From assembly GCF_000158195.2 (NCBI RefSeq), contig NZ_GL987988.1, forward strand, positions 496,226 to 547,531: a stretch of DNA of 51,306 nt, in the 5' to 3' direction. Positions 29,694 through 37,906 of this stretch are shown one piece after another. Numbering within the stretch: the first letter of the stretch is position 1; every line of letters starts with the position of its first letter. This DNA comes from Fusobacterium mortiferum ATCC 9817. GTDB lineage: Bacteria; Fusobacteriota; Fusobacteriia; Fusobacteriales; Fusobacteriaceae. Below the pieces are notes generated by a model. That model ran no database searches, was not told the origin of the DNA, and worked only from the letters and a program-made list of their open reading frames with translations. The position numbers and the translations under genes were made by a program.

Positions 29694-30962
29694 TTATTTA
29701 TTAAAAACTTTATCTAAAATATATCCGATAATATCTATTGAAAGATTATTTCCCCAGAAAACTCCATCTTTAGTGAAATTAAAGGAATTTTCTTTTTCAA
29801 TAACAAGTTTTTCTTCTTCATAACTCTTCATTTTCTCACAGAAGTACTTATACTCTTCCTCGTTTAAAATAGCTTTAATACTCTCCTTAGAGATGATAGG
29901 GAACTGCATTATTCCAGAAAGCTTAGCAAATTTGGCATGGTATTCAGTCTGCTTAGAGTAAAAGCTCATCTCTTTATTCATCCTAAATACTCCAATTCCT
30001 TGAACACTACCTCCAGCACCTACTCCAATAGGGAAAGTATCGCCACCACTATTTCTAACTTGAATGTATTGGTAAGTATCCCCACCATTTTTAGCTATCT
30101 TAGTAAGTTCTAAAATGTAGTATTTATCCTCTCTTAACATTTCATCAATAAAATGAGAGTAAAGAAGATAATCTTTTTTCATATCCTCTTCCATTATCAC
30201 TTTCTCAGCTTCAATATCTTTAGAAAGCTTAGATCCTTCATGAACCATAAGAGAATAGAAACTAGCACTTCCAAGTTCTAATTCTTTCACAATTCTAGCA
30301 TCTTCTATAACCTCTTCAATAGTTTGGTCAGGGAAATTATAGATAATGTCTATACATATCTCTCCTTTGAAGAAGTTTTTTAGTTTTTTAAGTCTTTCAA
30401 TAACTTCATTTTTACTATAAGTTCTATTGTAGAAAATTCTTCCTCTTTCTGAGAAAGTTTGAATCCCTACACTGAGTCTATTTACTCCATATTTCATCAT
30501 TACTTCTAATTTTTCTTCAGTAAGATTATGAAGAGTTGTTTCAAAAGTAAACTCATAGTTCTCTCCGAGTTTTACATTTCTTTGAATGCTTTGAAGTATG
30601 ATTTCAAGTTGTTTAGGTTTATAAACAGTAGGAGTTCCTCCACCAAAGAAAATAACATCAAAAGTGCTTTCTTTAAAATATGTTGTTTGACCATATTTAT
30701 CAAATTCACTAGCTATATATTCAGCGTAGGAATCTAGGCTACCATCTAGTTGTTTTCTATTTAAATTACAAAATGAACATATTTTATCACAATATGGTGT
30801 ATGTACATAGATAGCTTTTTTTCTATCATCTGGTTTTATCTCAAGCATAGCTTCAAAACTTGATTTATCAGCTTTTTCACTAGGAACATATTTGCTAATA
30901 AGTCCAGTACTATCATGATGAGATTTATACCTCTTATCAAATAATAATAAATTGTTAATCAT
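29694..30962 (-). CDS. hutW: HutW/ChuW-like radical SAM enzyme (anaerobic haem degradation), copy 1
   Basis: A 422-residue radical SAM protein related to HemN. The [4Fe-4S]/SAM motif is CDKICSFC (C-x3-C-x2-C), preceded by IYVHTPY and followed by FFGGGTPTVY, FETTLHNL, RLSVGIQTF and IDIIYNFPDQT. The insert around residues 300-350 with GVGAGGSVQGIG and the C-terminal FTKDGVFWGNNLS are as in HutW/ChuW. ChuW opens haem without oxygen to give anaerobilin; this is inferred here from family and context. AGGAGG before ATG 30962. It sits 61 bp upstream of the TonB receptor gene and may be co-transcribed with it. Confidence 0.8.
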   Translation of the reverse strand: MINNLLLFDKRYKSHHDSTGLISKYVPSEKADKSSFEAMLEIKPDDRKKAIYVHTPYCDKICSFCNLNRKQLDGSLDSYAEYIASEFDKYGQTTYFKESTFDVIFFGGGTPTVYKPKQLEIILQSIQRNVKLGENYEFTFETTLHNLTEEKLEVMMKYGVNRLSVGIQTFSERGRIFYNRTYSKNEVIERLKKLKNFFKGEICIDIIYNFPDQTIEEVIEDARIVKELELGSASFYSLMVHEGSKLSKDIEAEKVIMEEDMKKDYLLYSHFIDEMLREDKYYILELTKIAKNGGDTYQYIQVRNSGGDTFPIGVGAGGSVQGIGVFRMNKEMSFYSKQTEYHAKFAKLSGIMQFPIISKESIKAILNEEEYKYFCEKMKSYEEEKLVIEKENSFNFTKDGVFWGNNLSIDIIGYILDKVFNK

Positions 30963-31101
30963 CTAAATCCTCCTCTAAAGTATACATATTTAATCTATTA
31001 TTAATATTTACTTATATTTTTATATTCAAAATAATTTTAACATAAATATAATAATATTTTTTTGATTTAAAGTCAATAAAAAATAAATATTTTACAATAA
31101 T

Positions 31102-31145: not shown

Positions 31146-31159
31146 CTAGGAGGGATATG

Positions 31160-31666
31160 ATGAGAACATTAATTGCTTATTCAACACTAACAGGGAATAC
31201 TAAAAAAGTTTGTGAAGCAGCGGCAAAAGCTTTTACAGAGATAGAAGTAAAAGATATCAGTGAAGTAACAACTTTAGATTATGATTTAATAGTTGTAGGG
31301 ACTTGGATAGATAAAGGGACTGCTGATACAAAGGCTCTTAAATTTATCGAAACAATAAAGAAAAAGAAAACAGCTTTCATATTTACATTAGGAGCTTATC
31401 CAGATTCACAACATGCTATGGATTGTATAGAGAGAATAAAAAAATTATTTGAAGGTAATGAAAATGAAGTAGTAGGACACTATCATTGTCAAGGAGCTAT
31501 TGATCCAAAACTTATAGAGATGATGAAAACAAAATTTGGACCAGATCATCCTCATGGACCAAACCCTGAAAGAATAAAAAGATGGAAAGATGCAAGTAAG
31601 CATCCAGATGAAAATGATTTAGAAAATGCATATAATTATTTTAAGAATTTAATTATAAATTTATAG
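31160..31666 (+). CDS. Flavodoxin-family protein
   Basis: A 168-residue flavodoxin. The FMN phosphate loop is YSTLTGNTKK at the N-terminus, followed by DYDLIVVGTWIDKGTADTKA and FIFTLGAYPDSQHA. The C-terminal part contains GHYHCQGAIDPKLIE, found in flavodoxin-like proteins near haem and radical SAM genes. It probably supplies electrons to the HutW-like enzyme transcribed divergently from the same 200-bp region. Two ATGs are possible (31157 and 31160); AGGAGG at 31148-31153 is better spaced for 31160. Confidence 0.83.
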   Translation: MRTLIAYSTLTGNTKKVCEAAAKAFTEIEVKDISEVTTLDYDLIVVGTWIDKGTADTKALKFIETIKKKKTAFIFTLGAYPDSQHAMDCIERIKKLFEGNENEVVGHYHCQGAIDPKLIEMMKTKFGPDHPHGPNPERIKRWKDASKHPDENDLENAYNYFKNLIINL

Positions 31667-31707: not shown

Positions 31708-31741
31708 TAAAAATAAAGTTAGATATAAAATATTTTTCAAA

Positions 31742-31832
31742 AAATATAAAAGCTGTCAGATTTTTATATGCACTGACAGCTTTTATATTAGTTGTTAATT
31801 AAGTAAATTAAAATACTTTAAAAGAAAGGATT
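31742..31832 (-). ncRNA. Small RNA, copy 1 of a twin pair
   Basis: A minus-strand transcript of about 90 nt is predicted from a near-consensus promoter (31867-31839) to a 15-bp terminator hairpin (31773-31787 with 31745-31759, then TTTT). It has no ORF. Its first 36 bases or so (31834-31799) are identical to copy 2 at 34819-34784 and begin near AATCCTTTCTTTTAAAG. This C/U-rich, unpaired 5' end could base-pair with GAAAGGA-type ribosome sites. It lies between the flavodoxin and DUF454 genes in the haem island. Expression is inferred from promoter, terminator and duplication. Confidence 0.7.
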
Positions 31833-31838
31833 AATTGA

Positions 31839-31867
31839 ATTATATAGTATAGTTAGATAAAAGTCAA
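31839..31867 (-). promoter_or_regulatory. Promoter of small RNA copy 1
   Basis: TTGACT (31867-31862), 17 bp, TATAAT (31844-31839). The spacing and both boxes are the same as in copy 2, while most spacer bases differ. Confidence 0.7.
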
Positions 31868-31909
31868 GTAAAAAATTAAAAAATAAAATATTTTTAATAT
31901 CAAATTAAA

Positions 31910-32269
31910 TTACTTTAGAGTTTTTAGTCTTAAAATATGGCAAGAAACTCCAAATAAAACTAAGATTAGAAATAATTTTAAATGAAAGCTTGAGATTTTA
32001 GTAAGAGAAAAAGTTATGCTAATTACAAGAATACTAATAGCAATAATTTTATTCTTTAAAGTAACTCCTTTTTTCTCTTGATAATCTCTTATATATTGTC
32101 CAAAAATTTTATTTTCTAAAAGAGCTTTATGAAATTTTTCAGAAGATTTACTGAAGCAAAAAGCACTTAAAAGTAAAAATGGCGTGGTAGGAAGTAGTGG
32201 AAGAAAAATTCCAAGACACCCTAGAACTAAAGAGATAGTTCCTAAAGATAGCAAAAAAATTTTTTTCAT
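31910..32269 (-). CDS. DUF454 (YbaN-like) membrane protein
   Basis: A 119-residue inner-membrane protein with three hydrophobic segments. The family block LGTISLVLGCLGIFLPLLPTTPFLLLSAFCFSKSSEKFH is clear, followed by NKIFGQYIRDYQEKKG. Function is unknown; some members lie near haem genes, as here. I chose ATG 32269, 6 bases after GAGGTG. An in-frame GTG at 32278 lies within that ribosome site. Confidence 0.82.
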   Translation of the reverse strand: MKKIFLLSLGTISLVLGCLGIFLPLLPTTPFLLLSAFCFSKSSEKFHKALLENKIFGQYIRDYQEKKGVTLKNKIIAISILVISITFSLTKISSFHLKLFLILVLFGVSCHILRLKTLK

Positions 32270-32284
32270 TAATATCACCTCATT

Positions 32285-32373
32285 ATTTTAGTAAAATGAT
32301 ATATCAAAAAATTAAAAAAGTCAAATTAATTCAATATAAAAATATTGACATTCAAAATATTTTGATATAGAAT
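32285..32373. promoter_or_regulatory. Divergent promoters for DUF454 and the third TonB receptor
   Basis: Minus strand: TTGACT (32324-32319), 17 bp, TATCAT (32301-32296), overlapping a palindrome ATTTTAGTAAAAT (32285-32297). Plus strand: TTGACA (32345-32350), 17 bp, TAGAAT (32368-32373), with palindrome TCAAAATATTTTGA (32352-32365) filling the spacer. Both palindromes are placed to block RNA polymerase. Confidence 0.6.
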
Positions 32374-32407
32374 TAATATTATTAAAAATAGAGGGGAGAA
32401 TATTTAA

Positions 32408-34564
32408 ATGAAAAAAGAAAAATTATTACTATTACTATTAGCAATCGTTCAAGTTAAGAATTTAGCCTTTTCAGAAGATATTAAATTGGGAGCTACTTTT
32501 ATTAATCCTGATTATATTGAAATTGAAAAATTAAAATCAACTAAAAATGTAATTGTGATTGATAAAAATCAAATTGATGAAAAGGGGTACACATCAGTTT
32601 CCCAAGTTTTAAATGATGTCCCAGGAATAACAGTAGGAACTACACAATGGGGAGAGATTGATATTAGAGGACAAGGAGATCAAGCTTCTAGAAATATTCA
32701 AGTTATGATAGATGGAGCTCCTATTACTACTTTAGTAAGTCATCCTTATGGAACAAACTATGATGTTGTTCCTGTGGAACAGATTGAAAAGATAGAAGTA
32801 ATCCCTGGAGGTGGTAGTGTTTTATATGGAAATGGTACTGTAGGAGGAGTAATTAATATTACTACTAATTTAAAAGCTATGAGTAAACCAATTAATAAAG
32901 TTGGATATGAGTATTCTCAAGATAAAGAAAAAAAATATTATGTGAATGCAGGAACAAAAATTAATGATGATTTAACAGTTCAACTTAATTATTCTAAAAG
33001 TGATAAAGATTGGTATTTTGTAGATACTTATAATAATTCTCAATATTTTTCAGGAGGATTTAATTATAGAATTTCAGATAGACAAAGTTTTTCTTTTAAG
33101 TATAGTCATTTAGAGGAAGAGGGGCAATTTATAAAAGCAATAACTAAAAGTAATTTAGAAAAATATGGTAAAGATTATAGACCTAAATATCAAAATGTAA
33201 CAGTTGGTGTAGATAAAAATGGTCTAAAAATAGTAGAAAAGAAAAGAAGTTATTTAAGCAGTGATAGAGAAGATGATAGTTTTAAACTGAGTTATAACTA
33301 TGCAGTAAATGAATCAATAACTGCTTCAGTAGATGCTTTTAAAAGTGATGGGTATTTTACCAATAACGATGATGATGATACTAAAATGTATCAAGAGACC
33401 ATAGGAACAAAAGCAAAATTAAATATTGAATATGGGGAAAAAAGTAGTATTTTATTTGGAATAGATTATTTTAAACAAAATGCTAGCCTACATTACAGTG
33501 ATTATAAGATGAGGAAAATATCAAATGGAGATAAAGTTATGCCTGGTCAAACTGTAGATGGAAATTATATAAAATATGATGGAAAATATACTTATAAAGA
33601 AGTTCCACTTAAATTTGACTATGAAAGATTTGTAAAAGCTATATATTTTATGAATATATATGAAAGAGGAAAATTTGAGTTTACTCAAGGAATGAGATAT
33701 GATATTACAGATTGGAGTTTTGATAAAAAAGCTTCAGATGGACCTGGAAATGATACTAGTGTGAGAAAAAATCAAAACTATGAATTGTCAATTGGATATA
33801 ATTACAGAGATACTGGTAAAGTATATGCAAGATATGAAAGAGGTTTTACTGGACCTGATGGGCAACAAATTTCTGATAGAGTTTTAGATTCTGAAGGAAA
33901 CAAAATATATGTAAAAACAGAAGCTGAAGATGAAATATTTGATATATATGAAATAGGATGGAGAGATTATATTTGGGGTTCAGCTTTTAATCTAACTCTT
34001 TTCTATAATACTACAGATAATCAGATGAATAGAGTATATGTAAATGGAATAAGTGAATCTAGAACAGTAAACTATTTAGCAACAGATAGATATGGAATTG
34101 AATTTAGTGCAAATCAAAGTTTAGGAAAGTTTTCTTTTGAAGAAAGTTATTCGTATTTAAAGGGAAAGAGTAAGTATAATGATAAAGGAAATCAAGCTAT
34201 AGAAGATGGAAATAAGATTGATTGGTCAAATAGTGGATTACAAAAAGTTCCTAAACATATGTTGACACTAAAAGTTGATTATGAAATGACAGATAATCTA
34301 AGTACTGGAATTGCTTGGAAATATACAGGAAAATATAATAATTTTTATAATGAAGCTGACAAAGATGAAGATAGTCTAGTTAAATCGAATACTGTTGTAG
34401 ATTTATCATTAAAATATAATCATCCAAATGGATTAAGTATTTATGGTGGAATTAATAATATTTTTAATGAGAAGTATTATTCGTATTCTACTCCAGGAAG
34501 TTATGCAGTTGTAATACCAGCAGATAGTAGAACTTTTTATACAGGAATAAGTTATACTTTCTAA
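32408..34564 (+). CDS. TonB-dependent outer-membrane receptor (third of three)
   Basis: A 718-residue receptor. Signal peptide KLLLLLLAIVQVKNLAFS; plug domain with VLNDVPGITVGT, IDIRGQGDQASRNIQVMIDGAP and IEKIEVIPGGGSVLYGNGTVGGVINI; barrel ending SRTFYTGISYTF with a terminal Phe. Unlike the other two receptors it stands alone with its own promoter and terminator. It is near a HutW-like gene on each side, so a haem-type ligand is plausible. No HRAM/NPNL haem motif is visible, so the ligand is open. Confidence 0.87.
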   Translation: MKKEKLLLLLLAIVQVKNLAFSEDIKLGATFINPDYIEIEKLKSTKNVIVIDKNQIDEKGYTSVSQVLNDVPGITVGTTQWGEIDIRGQGDQASRNIQVMIDGAPITTLVSHPYGTNYDVVPVEQIEKIEVIPGGGSVLYGNGTVGGVINITTNLKAMSKPINKVGYEYSQDKEKKYYVNAGTKINDDLTVQLNYSKSDKDWYFVDTYNNSQYFSGGFNYRISDRQSFSFKYSHLEEEGQFIKAITKSNLEKYGKDYRPKYQNVTVGVDKNGLKIVEKKRSYLSSDREDDSFKLSYNYAVNESITASVDAFKSDGYFTNNDDDDTKMYQETIGTKAKLNIEYGEKSSILFGIDYFKQNASLHYSDYKMRKISNGDKVMPGQTVDGNYIKYDGKYTYKEVPLKFDYERFVKAIYFMNIYERGKFEFTQGMRYDITDWSFDKKASDGPGNDTSVRKNQNYELSIGYNYRDTGKVYARYERGFTGPDGQQISDRVLDSEGNKIYVKTEAEDEIFDIYEIGWRDYIWGSAFNLTLFYNTTDNQMNRVYVNGISESRTVNYLATDRYGIEFSANQSLGKFSFEESYSYLKGKSKYNDKGNQAIEDGNKIDWSNSGLQKVPKHMLTLKVDYEMTDNLSTGIAWKYTGKYNNFYNEADKDEDSLVKSNTVVDLSLKYNHPNGLSIYGGINNIFNEKYYSYSTPGSYAVVIPADSRTFYTGISYTF

Positions 34565-34579
34565 TGATAAGATAGGAAT

Positions 34580-34613
34580 AAAAAGTTGAGTAAATCCAGT
34601 ACTCAACTTTTTT
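34580..34613 (+). terminator. Terminator of the third TonB receptor gene
   Basis: AAAAAGTTGAGTA (34580-34592) pairs with TACTCAACTTTTT (34600-34612), followed by T. It starts 16 bp after the stop codon. Confidence 0.85.
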
Positions 34614-34726
34614 AGTAACAATCGTATAAATGAAAAAATTCATTTTTTAAATTTTTGAGCTTAGAATGAGATTTTCCTTTGATGGTTAAAAGATTTTTTA
34701 GAATTTGGAAATAAAGTTTTTAATAA

Positions 34727-34817
34727 AAATATAAAAGCTGTCAGATTTTTATAACACTGACAGCTTTTATATTAATTGTTAGTTTAAGTAAATTAAAATA
34801 CTTTAAAAGAAAGGATT
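34727..34817 (-). ncRNA. Small RNA, copy 2 of a twin pair
   Basis: Second copy of the 31742-31832 RNA, with the same architecture: promoter 34852-34824, identical 36-base 5' block (34819-34784), then the same 15-bp terminator stem (34757-34771 with 34730-34744) and T-run. Differences are in the short linker, the loop and the promoter spacer. This fills most of the 395-bp gap between the third TonB gene and the second HutW-like gene; I see no protein gene there. Confidence 0.7.
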
Positions 34818-34823
34818 AAATGA

Positions 34824-34852
34824 ATTATATATTATATTTAATCAAAAGTCAA
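34824..34852 (-). promoter_or_regulatory. Promoter of small RNA copy 2
   Basis: TTGACT (34852-34847), 17 bp, TATAAT (34829-34824). Confidence 0.7.
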
Positions 34853-34959
34853 GTATTTATTTTATAAAATATTTTAAAATTCAAAATAAAAAGTTTTAAA
34901 GAAATTTTTATGTAAATTATTACTGTTATTTTTAAAATATATTTTTAATGAAGTAAAAA

Positions 34960-36195
34960 TTATTCTAACTCTATCATTTTTTCAATTAAAACTGCAACAA
35001 TACTATTACCCCAAAATATACCATCTAGTGTATATTTAAATGAATCTTCAAAAAATTCTATGTATTTACTTTTTTGAAACTCTTGTAAGAGTCTTAATAT
35101 TTCAGGATATATTTTATCTCCTGTTAATTCTCTAATATTGCTTAATTTTACTTCAGGATATTGTAAAATTCCAGAAAGTTTTTTTACTTTGTATTTAAAA
35201 TTAGAATCTTTAGCATAGAAAGTAATAAACTTATTCAAATTAAAATATTCAATATTTTTAACTCTTCCACCAGCTCCAACTCCAATAGCAAATAAATCAG
35301 AGAAAGAGTTTATATTTTTTATATATCTATATTCATCTTTTCCATTTGTAATTTTAGTGTGCTCTAATAATTTATATCCATTATTTAGTGTTTTTTCTAA
35401 AAAAGTATGATGTAATTCCTTATCTCTATAAATTTGGTAATTAAAATTTAATTTATTTTCATTTAAAGCTTTAGAAAGATTTGAACCTTCATGTATCATT
35501 AAAGAATAAAAACTAATACTATCAACTTCTAATTCAGTGGCAATTTTAGCATCATTTTCGATTTCTTCTAAGCTTTCATCTAAGTAATTATAAATAATAT
35601 CAATACAAATAAGCCCTTTAAAATTTTTTTTAAGTTCTTTTATTCTTTTAATAATTTCTTTTTGTTCATAAGTTCTATTTAACAGTTTTCTTCCTCTATC
35701 AGAAAAAGTTTGTATTCCAATACTTAATCTATTGACTCCATATTTTTCCATAATAGCTAATTTTTTTAATGTTAAATTATGAAGAGTAGTTTCAAATGTA
35801 AATTCGCAATTAGAAGAAATATTAAAACTGTTAGTAAGAGTGGATAATATTTTTTCAAGTTGATACTCTTTGTATATAGTAGGAGTTCCTCCACCAAAAA
35901 ATATAGTAGTAATTTCCTTTCCTTGAACATATTTTTTACTCCCATATTTTTCAAATTCTTTACATAAATATTCAACATAGTCATCTAAATTGTTGGATAC
36001 TTGCTTTCTATTCATATTACAGAATGAGCAAATTTTATCACAATAGGGAGTATGAACATAGATTCCAGCTTCTTTGTTTTCTGGTTCTTCATTGAGTAAC
36101 TTATTGAATGTAAAAGGAGTTACTATACTTTTTTTAGTTAACTTATTAATAACATCTTTTACATCATGATGGGATTTATATCTTTTTTCAAACAT
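34960..36195 (-). CDS. HutW/ChuW-like radical SAM enzyme, copy 2
   Basis: A 411-residue paralogue of the 29694-30962 protein. The cluster motif CDKICSFC is intact, as are IYVHTPY, FFGGGTPTIY, FETTLHNL, RLSIGIQTF, GVGAGGRVKNIE and the C-terminal YTLDGIFWGNSIV. The start at ATG 36195 (MFEKRYKSHHD) follows AAGGAG and aligns with copy 1; the upstream frame lies in the promoter. It may act on haem or on a related porphyrin, since the two copies have diverged in the central region. It is monocistronic. Confidence 0.78.
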   Translation of the reverse strand: MFEKRYKSHHDVKDVINKLTKKSIVTPFTFNKLLNEEPENKEAGIYVHTPYCDKICSFCNMNRKQVSNNLDDYVEYLCKEFEKYGSKKYVQGKEITTIFFGGGTPTIYKEYQLEKILSTLTNSFNISSNCEFTFETTLHNLTLKKLAIMEKYGVNRLSIGIQTFSDRGRKLLNRTYEQKEIIKRIKELKKNFKGLICIDIIYNYLDESLEEIENDAKIATELEVDSISFYSLMIHEGSNLSKALNENKLNFNYQIYRDKELHHTFLEKTLNNGYKLLEHTKITNGKDEYRYIKNINSFSDLFAIGVGAGGRVKNIEYFNLNKFITFYAKDSNFKYKVKKLSGILQYPEVKLSNIRELTGDKIYPEILRLLQEFQKSKYIEFFEDSFKYTLDGIFWGNSIVAVLIEKMIELE

Positions 36196-36221
36196 CTTTT
36201 TCTCCTTAAAATAAAAATATT

Positions 36222-36258
36222 GTAATAGAATATTACTCTTAAATATAAAAAAAGTCAA
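36222..36258 (-). promoter_or_regulatory. Promoter and imperfect palindrome of HutW copy 2
   Basis: TTGACT (36258-36253), 17 bp, TAATAT (36235-36230). GTAATAGAATATTAC (36222-36236) covers the -10 box and is a 7-1-7 palindrome with one mismatch. Confidence 0.55.
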
Positions 36259-36842: not shown

Positions 36843-37637
36843 ATGGAACAAATAGGAGAAAGAATATTAAAAACATTTTTTTTTAATTACTTAATACTAA
36901 ATGATGTTCATTTAATTGAAAGTTTAGTCTCTGAAAATTTTGTAGGAATTGGAACTAGTAAGTTAGAAATTGCTAAAAATAAGGATGAATTTTTAGAGAG
37001 CTTAAAGAATAGAATAAAAAATATAGGTGGAAAAGTTAGTTTTTATATAAATAATTATATTGAAAGAAACTTAGGAAGTATAATATCTTCATATTGTGAT
37101 CTAACAATTATATATTTTCATAAGGAAAAAAGAAGCTTGGAAACAAGGCTAACAACAATATTTTTTTATGAAGATGGAGATTGGAAGATAATAAGTATGC
37201 ATAATTCTATTCCTGAACTAAAACAGAATAAGGATGAGGTTTTTCCAAGAGAGTGGATATTGGAAGCTGAAAATTTAGCCAATATAGAGATATATTTACT
37301 TGGAAAATTTAAAAGAGGATTTTTTAAAACAAAAGATATAAACTATATAACTTATTCAAGTGTTACAAGGAGATCTACTTTCTTTTTAAGAAACTCAAGT
37401 AGTTTTGAAATTAAAAGAAATTTTTCAGAGGTTGAAGAGAGATTGGAAACAATAAAGTCCTTTTATAAATTAGATAGAGGAACTATTGTTAATATAGAGG
37501 CAGTAGAGATTTTAGATTTAAAAGAGGAAAGAATTATTTTTAAAAATAAACAAACATTATATGTAAGTAAGGTTAAATTAAAAGAATTAGAATCTAAATG
37601 GATAAGTATTAAAAATAAAAAAAATATAGAATTTTAA
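36843..37637 (+). CDS. SnoaL-like/LytTR one-component transcription regulator
   Basis: A 264-residue protein without a signal peptide. Residues about 1-130 form a SnoaL/NTF2-like domain (LVSENFVGIGTS, LETRLTTIFFYEDGDWKIISMHNSIP), which may bind a small ligand. Residues about 145-260 are a LytTR DNA-binding domain (IEIYLLGKFKRGFFKTKDINYITY, FYKLDRGTIVNIEAVEIL, SKVKLKELESKW). LytTR proteins bind paired direct repeats. Such repeats lie on both sides of this gene, so it probably controls itself and the pilus operon that starts 269 bp downstream. AGGAGGGG precedes the ATG. Confidence 0.82.
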   Translation: MEQIGERILKTFFFNYLILNDVHLIESLVSENFVGIGTSKLEIAKNKDEFLESLKNRIKNIGGKVSFYINNYIERNLGSIISSYCDLTIIYFHKEKRSLETRLTTIFFYEDGDWKIISMHNSIPELKQNKDEVFPREWILEAENLANIEIYLLGKFKRGFFKTKDINYITYSSVTRRSTFFLRNSSSFEIKRNFSEVEERLETIKSFYKLDRGTIVNIEAVEILDLKEERIIFKNKQTLYVSKVKLKELESKWISIKNKKNIEF

Positions 37638-37785: not shown

Positions 37786-37906
37786 ACATTAAATTATAAA
37801 TTTTTAAGTTAGATTAGGAAAAAAGAAATAAATTATAAAAAATTTTAAAATATAAAAGTAAACTGTATTAGAATAGTTTTAAAACGAAAGGAGTAAGGGA
37901 TATACA

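What the first reader, a model, noticed from the sequence alone, without database searches (positions are those of the whole stretch)
31742..34852. Twin small RNA genes inside the haem island
Two minus-strand loci, 31867-31742 and 34852-34727, share TTGACT-17-TATAAT promoters, an identical 36-base 5' block, and the same 15-bp terminator stem, while promoter spacers and loops differ. Keeping promoter, 5' end and terminator while other bases drift is the mark of duplicated functional small RNAs. The unpaired 5' end contains CCTTTC, complementary to GAAAGG ribosome sites. The leader of the pilus chaperone gene (GAAAGGA near 37886-37892) is one possible match, though that is close to any strong ribosome site.
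Basis: partly seen in the sequence, partly recalled or inferred. Interest (0 to 1): 0.75.

Follow-up and report, generated by a model that had tools for sequence, protein, structure and literature searches.

The report
Duplicated anti-Shine-Dalgarno sRNA family in Fusobacterium
Two near-identical genes for a short regulatory RNA sit beside haem-uptake genes in a Fusobacterium genome; they belong to an undescribed RNA family found only in this one genus, whose untouched 5' end looks built to cover ribosome-binding sites, but the link to haem is a neighbourhood, not a demonstrated function.

Summary
The two loci have TTGACT-17-TATAAT promoters, an identical 36-base 5' block and the same terminator stem. 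They are not just a local pair. A third copy lies elsewhere in the genome. Homologues occur in 11 of the 12 genomes searched from the genus (the twelfth is 71% complete) and in no other genus; two sub-0.001 hits in another genus are bare terminator hairpins. Rfam has no match. The third copy is the ancestral one, in conserved synteny (ruvC, nitroreductase, sRNA, converging with an acetyltransferase). The window's twins are later duplicates. AUCCUUUC is invariant in every copy, and no gene follows any mapped copy on the same strand, so a stand-alone trans-acting sRNA is by far the best reading. Nucleotides 2-9 (UCCUUUCU) equal the anti-Shine-Dalgarno tail of this genome's own 16S rRNA. The likeliest action is blocking ribosome binding at GAAAGGA(U)-type leaders. 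A haem or iron role is weakly supported: two genomes lack HmuW yet kept the sRNA at the island's scar, others have HmuW but no sRNA beside it, and a shared operator-like motif is post hoc. The pilus-chaperone target does not stand out. No transcript has been measured.

The parts
31739..31832 (-). sRNA copy a, predicted transcript of about 93 nt (predicted 5' end AAUCCUUUC at 31832/31831)
   Evidence: Position 7-8 nt after the -10 box; homologues aligned; fold; covariance model match 93 nt, 95.7 bits
31839..31867 (-). promoter of copy a, TTGACT-17-TATAAT
31743..31789 (-). terminator hairpin of copy a (17-bp stem), followed by T run
31820..31831 (-). 5' seed ATCCTTTCTTTT of copy a, invariant in all but one homologue (there ATCCTTTC remains)
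31886..31906 (-). operator-like box AATTTGATATTAAAAATATTT upstream of the -35 of copy a; shared by 'a-type' copies only
   Evidence: function inferred, weak
34724..34817 (-). sRNA copy b, predicted transcript of about 93 nt
34824..34852 (-). promoter of copy b, TTGACT-17-TATAAT
34728..34773 (-). terminator hairpin of copy b
34805..34816 (-). 5' seed ATCCTTTCTTTT of copy b
34871..34887 (-). operator-like box ATTTTGAATTTTAAAAT upstream of copy b
   Evidence: weak
31157..31666 (+). flavodoxin-family gene (hmuF-like by position and family), converges on copy a; has its own terminator-like hairpin after the stop
   Evidence: hmuF opposite to hmuW is described for F. ulcerans/varium in PMC10404700
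29694..30962 (-). radical SAM protein, ChuW/HutW/HmuW-like (216.8 bits to TIGR04107, under its cut-off of 400)
31910..32278 (-). DUF454 (YbaN-like) gene upstream of copy a
32408..34564 (+). TonB-dependent receptor, converges on copy b; own terminator-like hairpin after the stop
34960..36258 (-). second HutW-like radical SAM protein (49% identical to the first), upstream of copy b

Best explanation
Both loci encode stand-alone small RNAs of about 93 nt from their own sigma-70-type promoters, ended by an intrinsic terminator. They are sibling copies of one genus-specific family whose ancestral gene lies between a nitroreductase gene and a converging acetyltransferase gene. The RNA most likely acts in trans: its single-stranded 5' end (AUCCUUUCUUUU) pairs with GAAAGGA(U)-type Shine-Dalgarno regions of mRNAs and blocks ribosome binding. 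Nucleotides 2-9 are the same letters as the anti-Shine-Dalgarno tail of 16S rRNA. Shown by sequence: the gene family, its unit structure, conservation, covariation of the terminator stem, identity with the 16S tail, and relocation with the sequence kept. Inferred: that it is transcribed, that the 5' end is the seed, and that pairing represses. Not established: which mRNAs are targets, and whether haem or iron controls it.
For: Three copies in the genome. Homologues in 11 of 12 genus genomes, the exception being 71% complete, and no true homologue elsewhere in 98 genomes of the phylum. a-type versus c-type homology runs from the -35 box to the end of the terminator, about -37 to +100. Mean pairwise identity by region: -35 1.00, -10 0.94, 5' 12-mer 0.96, against spacer 0.75, discriminator 0.63, upstream 0.69, downstream 0.65. 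Spacer is 17 nt in all 16 copies. Both-sided compensatory changes in two terminator pairs. Folds leave the 5' 13 nt open, z -5.7 to -7.1. No co-oriented gene directly downstream of copies a, b and c or of the other mapped copies at the same loci. No start codon before the terminator hairpin. G022's a and c copies have the same 93-nt transcript under different promoters. 16S tail TGGATCACCTCCTTTCT found twice in this genome.
Against: No transcription data. The seed is nearly the general anti-SD, so target prediction does not discriminate: 217 start regions average -7.9 kcal/mol, and none in the island is an outlier once its SD strength is considered. Exact 11-mer complements are rare in this genome (3 outside the sRNA genes). 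The one leader with a strong match in four species (flavoredoxin-like gene, 11 bp) is not matched in this genome's clade.
Confidence: 0.72

Rival explanations
1. Iron- or haem-responsive sibling sRNAs working like PrrF, RyhB or IsrR: repressed when iron or haem is plentiful, switched on in starvation, sparing iron by repressing non-essential iron proteins.
For: Copies a and b lie between haem-island genes. In three species (G000, G018, G022) copy a is next to the flavodoxin and DUF454 genes. a-type copies alone keep a box about 20-40 nt upstream of the -35 even at unrelated sites (homology to -76). A related motif (ATTTTGANNTTCAAAAT, up to 1 mismatch) has 10 places in 2.67 Mb, three of them in this island, one before another TonB receptor on C8.
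Against: The motif was drawn up after looking at these promoters, and its stricter form is no commoner in the genus than its reversed control. G019 and G020 have no HmuW orthologue (best hit 30%) but keep copy a. G024-G028 have HmuW but only the c-type sRNA, not beside it. Copy c has no such box.
Confidence: 0.25
2. Not an RNA gene but a DNA element: a bidirectional terminator between convergent genes, or a small mobile repeat, with the promoter-like parts along for the ride.
For: The stem is flanked by A and T runs and could stop transcription from both sides; in the c locus it directly follows the converging acetyltransferase gene. An outgroup genus has only a similar hairpin after the nitroreductase gene.
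Against: -35, -10, a 17-nt spacer and the 5' 12-mer are the best conserved parts, which a terminator does not need. The flavodoxin and TonB genes have hairpins of their own. 1-3 copies per genome, no hit in plasmids or viral contigs, no inverted ends.
Confidence: 0.07
3. A cis-acting leader (riboswitch or attenuator) for a downstream gene.
For: Promoter plus hairpin plus T run is also the plan of an attenuator.
Against: At the island and ancestral loci the gene after the terminator faces the other way. No Rfam riboswitch.
Confidence: 0.02
4. A global translation-tuning RNA: an anti-SD mimic that competes with 16S rRNA at many SD sites, without specific targets.
For: Exact 8-nt identity with the 16S tail; broad weak pairing with many start regions.
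Against: The conserved part goes beyond the mimic (leading A, UUUU or AAAAG afterwards), which suggests specific partners; sRNA levels would have to approach mRNA levels.
Confidence: 0.1

Closest known systems
FoxI and FoxJ sRNAs of Fusobacterium nucleatum (PMC11005410)
   Same: Small trans-acting RNAs in Fusobacteriota, which lack Hfq and ProQ in F. nucleatum; C-containing seed; FoxI's C stretch lies in a long single-stranded stretch.
   Different: Those depend on sigma-E and use poly-C stretches against fomA; FoxJ is about 156 nt. This family has TTGACT/TATAAT promoters, a CCUUUCU seed and was found here in another genus-level group only.
PrrF1/PrrF2 (Pseudomonas) and other sibling sRNAs (review PMC4211561)
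   Same: Near-identical sRNA pair; here beside haem or iron genes; duplicated then dispersed; tandem in some species (here G021).
   Different: Iron control and iron-sparing targets are shown there, not here; no sequence relation (Rfam has no match).
IsrR of Staphylococcus aureus (PMC11448259)
   Same: C-rich single-stranded segments that pair with Shine-Dalgarno sequences in a low-GC bacterium.
   Different: IsrR has three C-rich regions and is Fur-repressed; here there is one 5' seed and no proven regulator.

Membership tests
Any Rfam 15 family | Match at or above gathering score | tested here: not met
   No match in the window; with a permissive threshold only chance-level eukaryotic models
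Intrinsically terminated stand-alone sRNA genes (broad kind) | Own promoter | tested here: met
   TTGACT-17-TATAAT, -35 invariant in 16 copies
Intrinsically terminated stand-alone sRNA genes (broad kind) | Rho-independent terminator with conserved pairing | tested here: met
   17-bp stem, two pairs with compensatory change
Intrinsically terminated stand-alone sRNA genes (broad kind) | A discrete transcript | not testable with these tools
   No expression data
Sibling sRNAs | Two or more near-identical sRNA genes in one genome, from duplication | tested here: met
   Three copies in G000, two in G018-G022
FoxI/FoxJ | sigma-E-dependent promoter and poly-C seed | tested here: not met
   Promoter is sigma-70 type and the seed is AUCCUUUC; FoxI/FoxJ features from PMC11005410
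RyhB/PrrF-type iron-sparing sRNAs | Transcription repressed by Fur | tested here: inconclusive
   Operator-like box in a-type copies only; motif evidence post hoc
RyhB/PrrF-type iron-sparing sRNAs | Targets are mRNAs of iron proteins | tested here: inconclusive
   Pairing predictions could not separate targets from ordinary SD sequences

The most novel reading that the evidence does not exclude
A new sRNA gene was born in the ancestor of this genus when a promoter and a 5' seed arose between a nitroreductase gene's stop codon and its existing terminator, giving an RNA whose 5' end copies the 16S anti-Shine-Dalgarno tail; it was then duplicated, given a second type of promoter in the haem island, kept uniform by gene conversion in one species, and outlived the deletion of that island in another.
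Probability: 0.3. Interest if true: 0.55.

Novelty: new member of a known kind. Interest (0 to 1): 0.42.

Why it matters
Very few Fusobacterium sRNAs are described, and those found in the held literature come from F. nucleatum. This is a clearly bounded, undescribed family in the F. mortiferum-type group and its genus relatives, with a precise seed, an identifiable ancestral locus and natural experiments (copy number 1 to 3, identical transcript under two promoters in G022, island loss in G019/G020, loss of the nitroreductase gene in G028). It gives a testable case for how sRNAs arise from a gene's 3' region and how anti-SD seeds work where Hfq is missing (Hfq absence is reported for F. nucleatum; not checked in this genome).

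Tried and rejected
1) Seed-complement search: the 11-mer AAAGAAAGGAT has only three sites outside the sRNA genes in the genome, one inside the coding sequence of the window's autotransporter; no convincing target. 2) AGAAAGGA-N3-10-ATG: 60 sites, 50 of them forward against 29 forward in the reversed control, and 9 of them one repeated element partly masked with N; not selective. 3) Longer pattern across the genus: a flavoredoxin-like gene has an 11-bp match in G024-G027, but its orthologues in G000 and its close relatives do not; an XRE-type regulator in three of those genomes was not followed up. 4) Duplex energies over 217 start regions: the pilus leader ranks 9, the LytTR-domain gene at 36843 ranks 2; both explained by strong SD sequences. 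5) Operator motif: clustering at the island is striking in this genome, but the strict genus-wide search is at control level. 6) Nitroreductase loci outside the genus: no seed or promoter downstream (the first script, stopped with an error). 7) Cyanophage blastn hits: 46 AT-rich bases in a coding gene, taken as chance.

Full report
WHAT IS THERE. The window lies in a 2.67 Mb genome of Fusobacteriaceae. Copy a is at 31867-31739 and copy b at 34852-34724, both on the minus strand, with exact TTGACT-17-TATAAT promoters, a 36-base identical block and a 17-bp terminator stem. The two differ in spacer, the segment after the 36-mer and the loop. Similarity is far beyond chance (E = 1.7e-47).

A THIRD COPY AND A FAMILY. 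A whole-genome search found a third copy on contig C8. A DNA search of the family found full-length homologues only in the same genus. A covariance model built from 14 copies, run on 98 genomes of the phylum, hit 11 of 12 genus genomes; the miss, G023, is 71% complete. The only other hits below E 0.001, two in G053 at about E 9e-4, are bare terminator hairpins without seed or promoter. Rfam has no match. Plasmids and viral contigs have none.

THE ANCESTRAL LOCUS. In most species one copy lies right after a nitroreductase gene next to ruvC and converges with a GNAT acetyltransferase gene. The nitroreductase stop codon is only a few nucleotides upstream of the -35 region. G028 has lost the nitroreductase gene there but keeps what looks like its last codons and the sRNA. 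In other genera the orthologous nitroreductase gene is followed by no such promoter or seed. In one genus (g14) it is followed directly by a hairpin whose 3' arm, TCTGCCGGCTTTTTT, differs by one base from that of G024-G027, TCTGCCAGCTTTTTT in G026. This suggests, but does not prove, that the sRNA arose by gaining a promoter and 5' end in front of an existing terminator.

THE DUPLICATES. a-type copies sit in the haem island in G000, G018 and G022, in tandem with the c-type copy in G021, and at a scar in G019/G020. There the flanking DNA still shows what I read as the tail of the DUF454 gene (nucleotide homology to -155; tblastn did not detect it), while no HmuW orthologue is left in the genome. 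b exists only in G000 among the genomes examined. a- and c-type homology spans only -37 to about +100. a-type copies share a further 38 nt upstream, even in unrelated surroundings. In G022 the a and c transcripts are identical over 93 nt although the promoters differ; gene conversion is the simplest reading.

WHY AN RNA GENE. The most conserved parts are the -35 box (100% mean identity), the -10 box (94%) and the first 12 transcribed bases (96%); the flanks and spacer are at 63-75%. The spacer is 17 nt in every copy. Two terminator pairs show compensatory change. The 5' end is unpaired in the folds. No start codon precedes the hairpin, and at the island and ancestral loci no co-oriented gene follows, so neither a small protein nor a leader or attenuator fits.

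HOW IT MAY WORK. Nucleotides 2-9 (UCCUUUCU) are identical to part of the 16S 3' tail of this genome, TGGATCACCTCCTTTCT. An RNA with this open 5' end should cover GAAAGGA-type ribosome sites, as C-rich seeds do in FoxI (PMC11005410) and IsrR (PMC11448259). In G028 only AUCCUUUC is kept, so GAAAGGAU is the minimal predicted site. I could not name a target with confidence. Predicted pairing follows SD strength, exact long complements are rare in this genome, and the best cross-species candidate, a flavoredoxin-like leader in G024-G027, fails in the window's clade.

HAEM? The neighbours are HutW/HmuW-like radical SAM proteins, a flavodoxin, TonB receptors and iron/haem-type and zinc-type ABC transporters. 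The anaerobic haem system with hmuF opposite hmuW is described in F. ulcerans and F. varium (PMC10404700). A motif, ATTTTGANNTTCAAAAT, occurs near the HmuW/flavodoxin, DUF454/TonB and copy b promoters and before another TonB receptor. But it was drawn up after the fact, and its strict form is not enriched in the genus. Retention of the sRNA without the island, and species with HmuW whose only sRNA copy lies at the ancestral locus, argue that its core role is not haem uptake. A newly recruited haem- or iron-controlled copy remains possible.

VERDICT. It is a new member of a known kind (sibling sRNAs with an anti-SD seed), in a bacterial group where few are known.

Noticed in passing
G020: end of contig C218 (L185) and end of contig C206 (L042): The c-type sRNA promoter is split between -35 and -10 by an insertion with 12-bp inverted ends (GTAACTACTCAG/CTGAGTAGTTAC) and an 8-bp target duplication GGTTAATG: an insertion sequence seems to have interrupted one copy in F. 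mortiferum An814.
   Followed up: partly
window 29694-30962 and 34960-36258: Two HutW/HmuW-like radical SAM proteins only 49% identical in one haem region, both under the TIGR04107 cut-off; the second may have another substrate.
   Followed up: no
   Followed up: partly
G000, e.g. C1:128484, C2:13079, C2:69957: A repeated element with AGAAAGGATTTATTCCAAATG occurs nine times; its other side is masked with N in the record.
   Followed up: no
window 31016-31032, 32342-32358, 34871-34887; G000:C8:594220: AT-rich palindrome-like motif shared by haem-island promoters and a TonB receptor promoter elsewhere; possible operator of an unidentified iron or haem regulator.
   Followed up: partly
L045 7979-8334 (G021): Two sRNA copies in direct tandem about 215 bp apart near the ancestral locus, which may be the stage before dispersal of the a-type copy.
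   Followed up: partly
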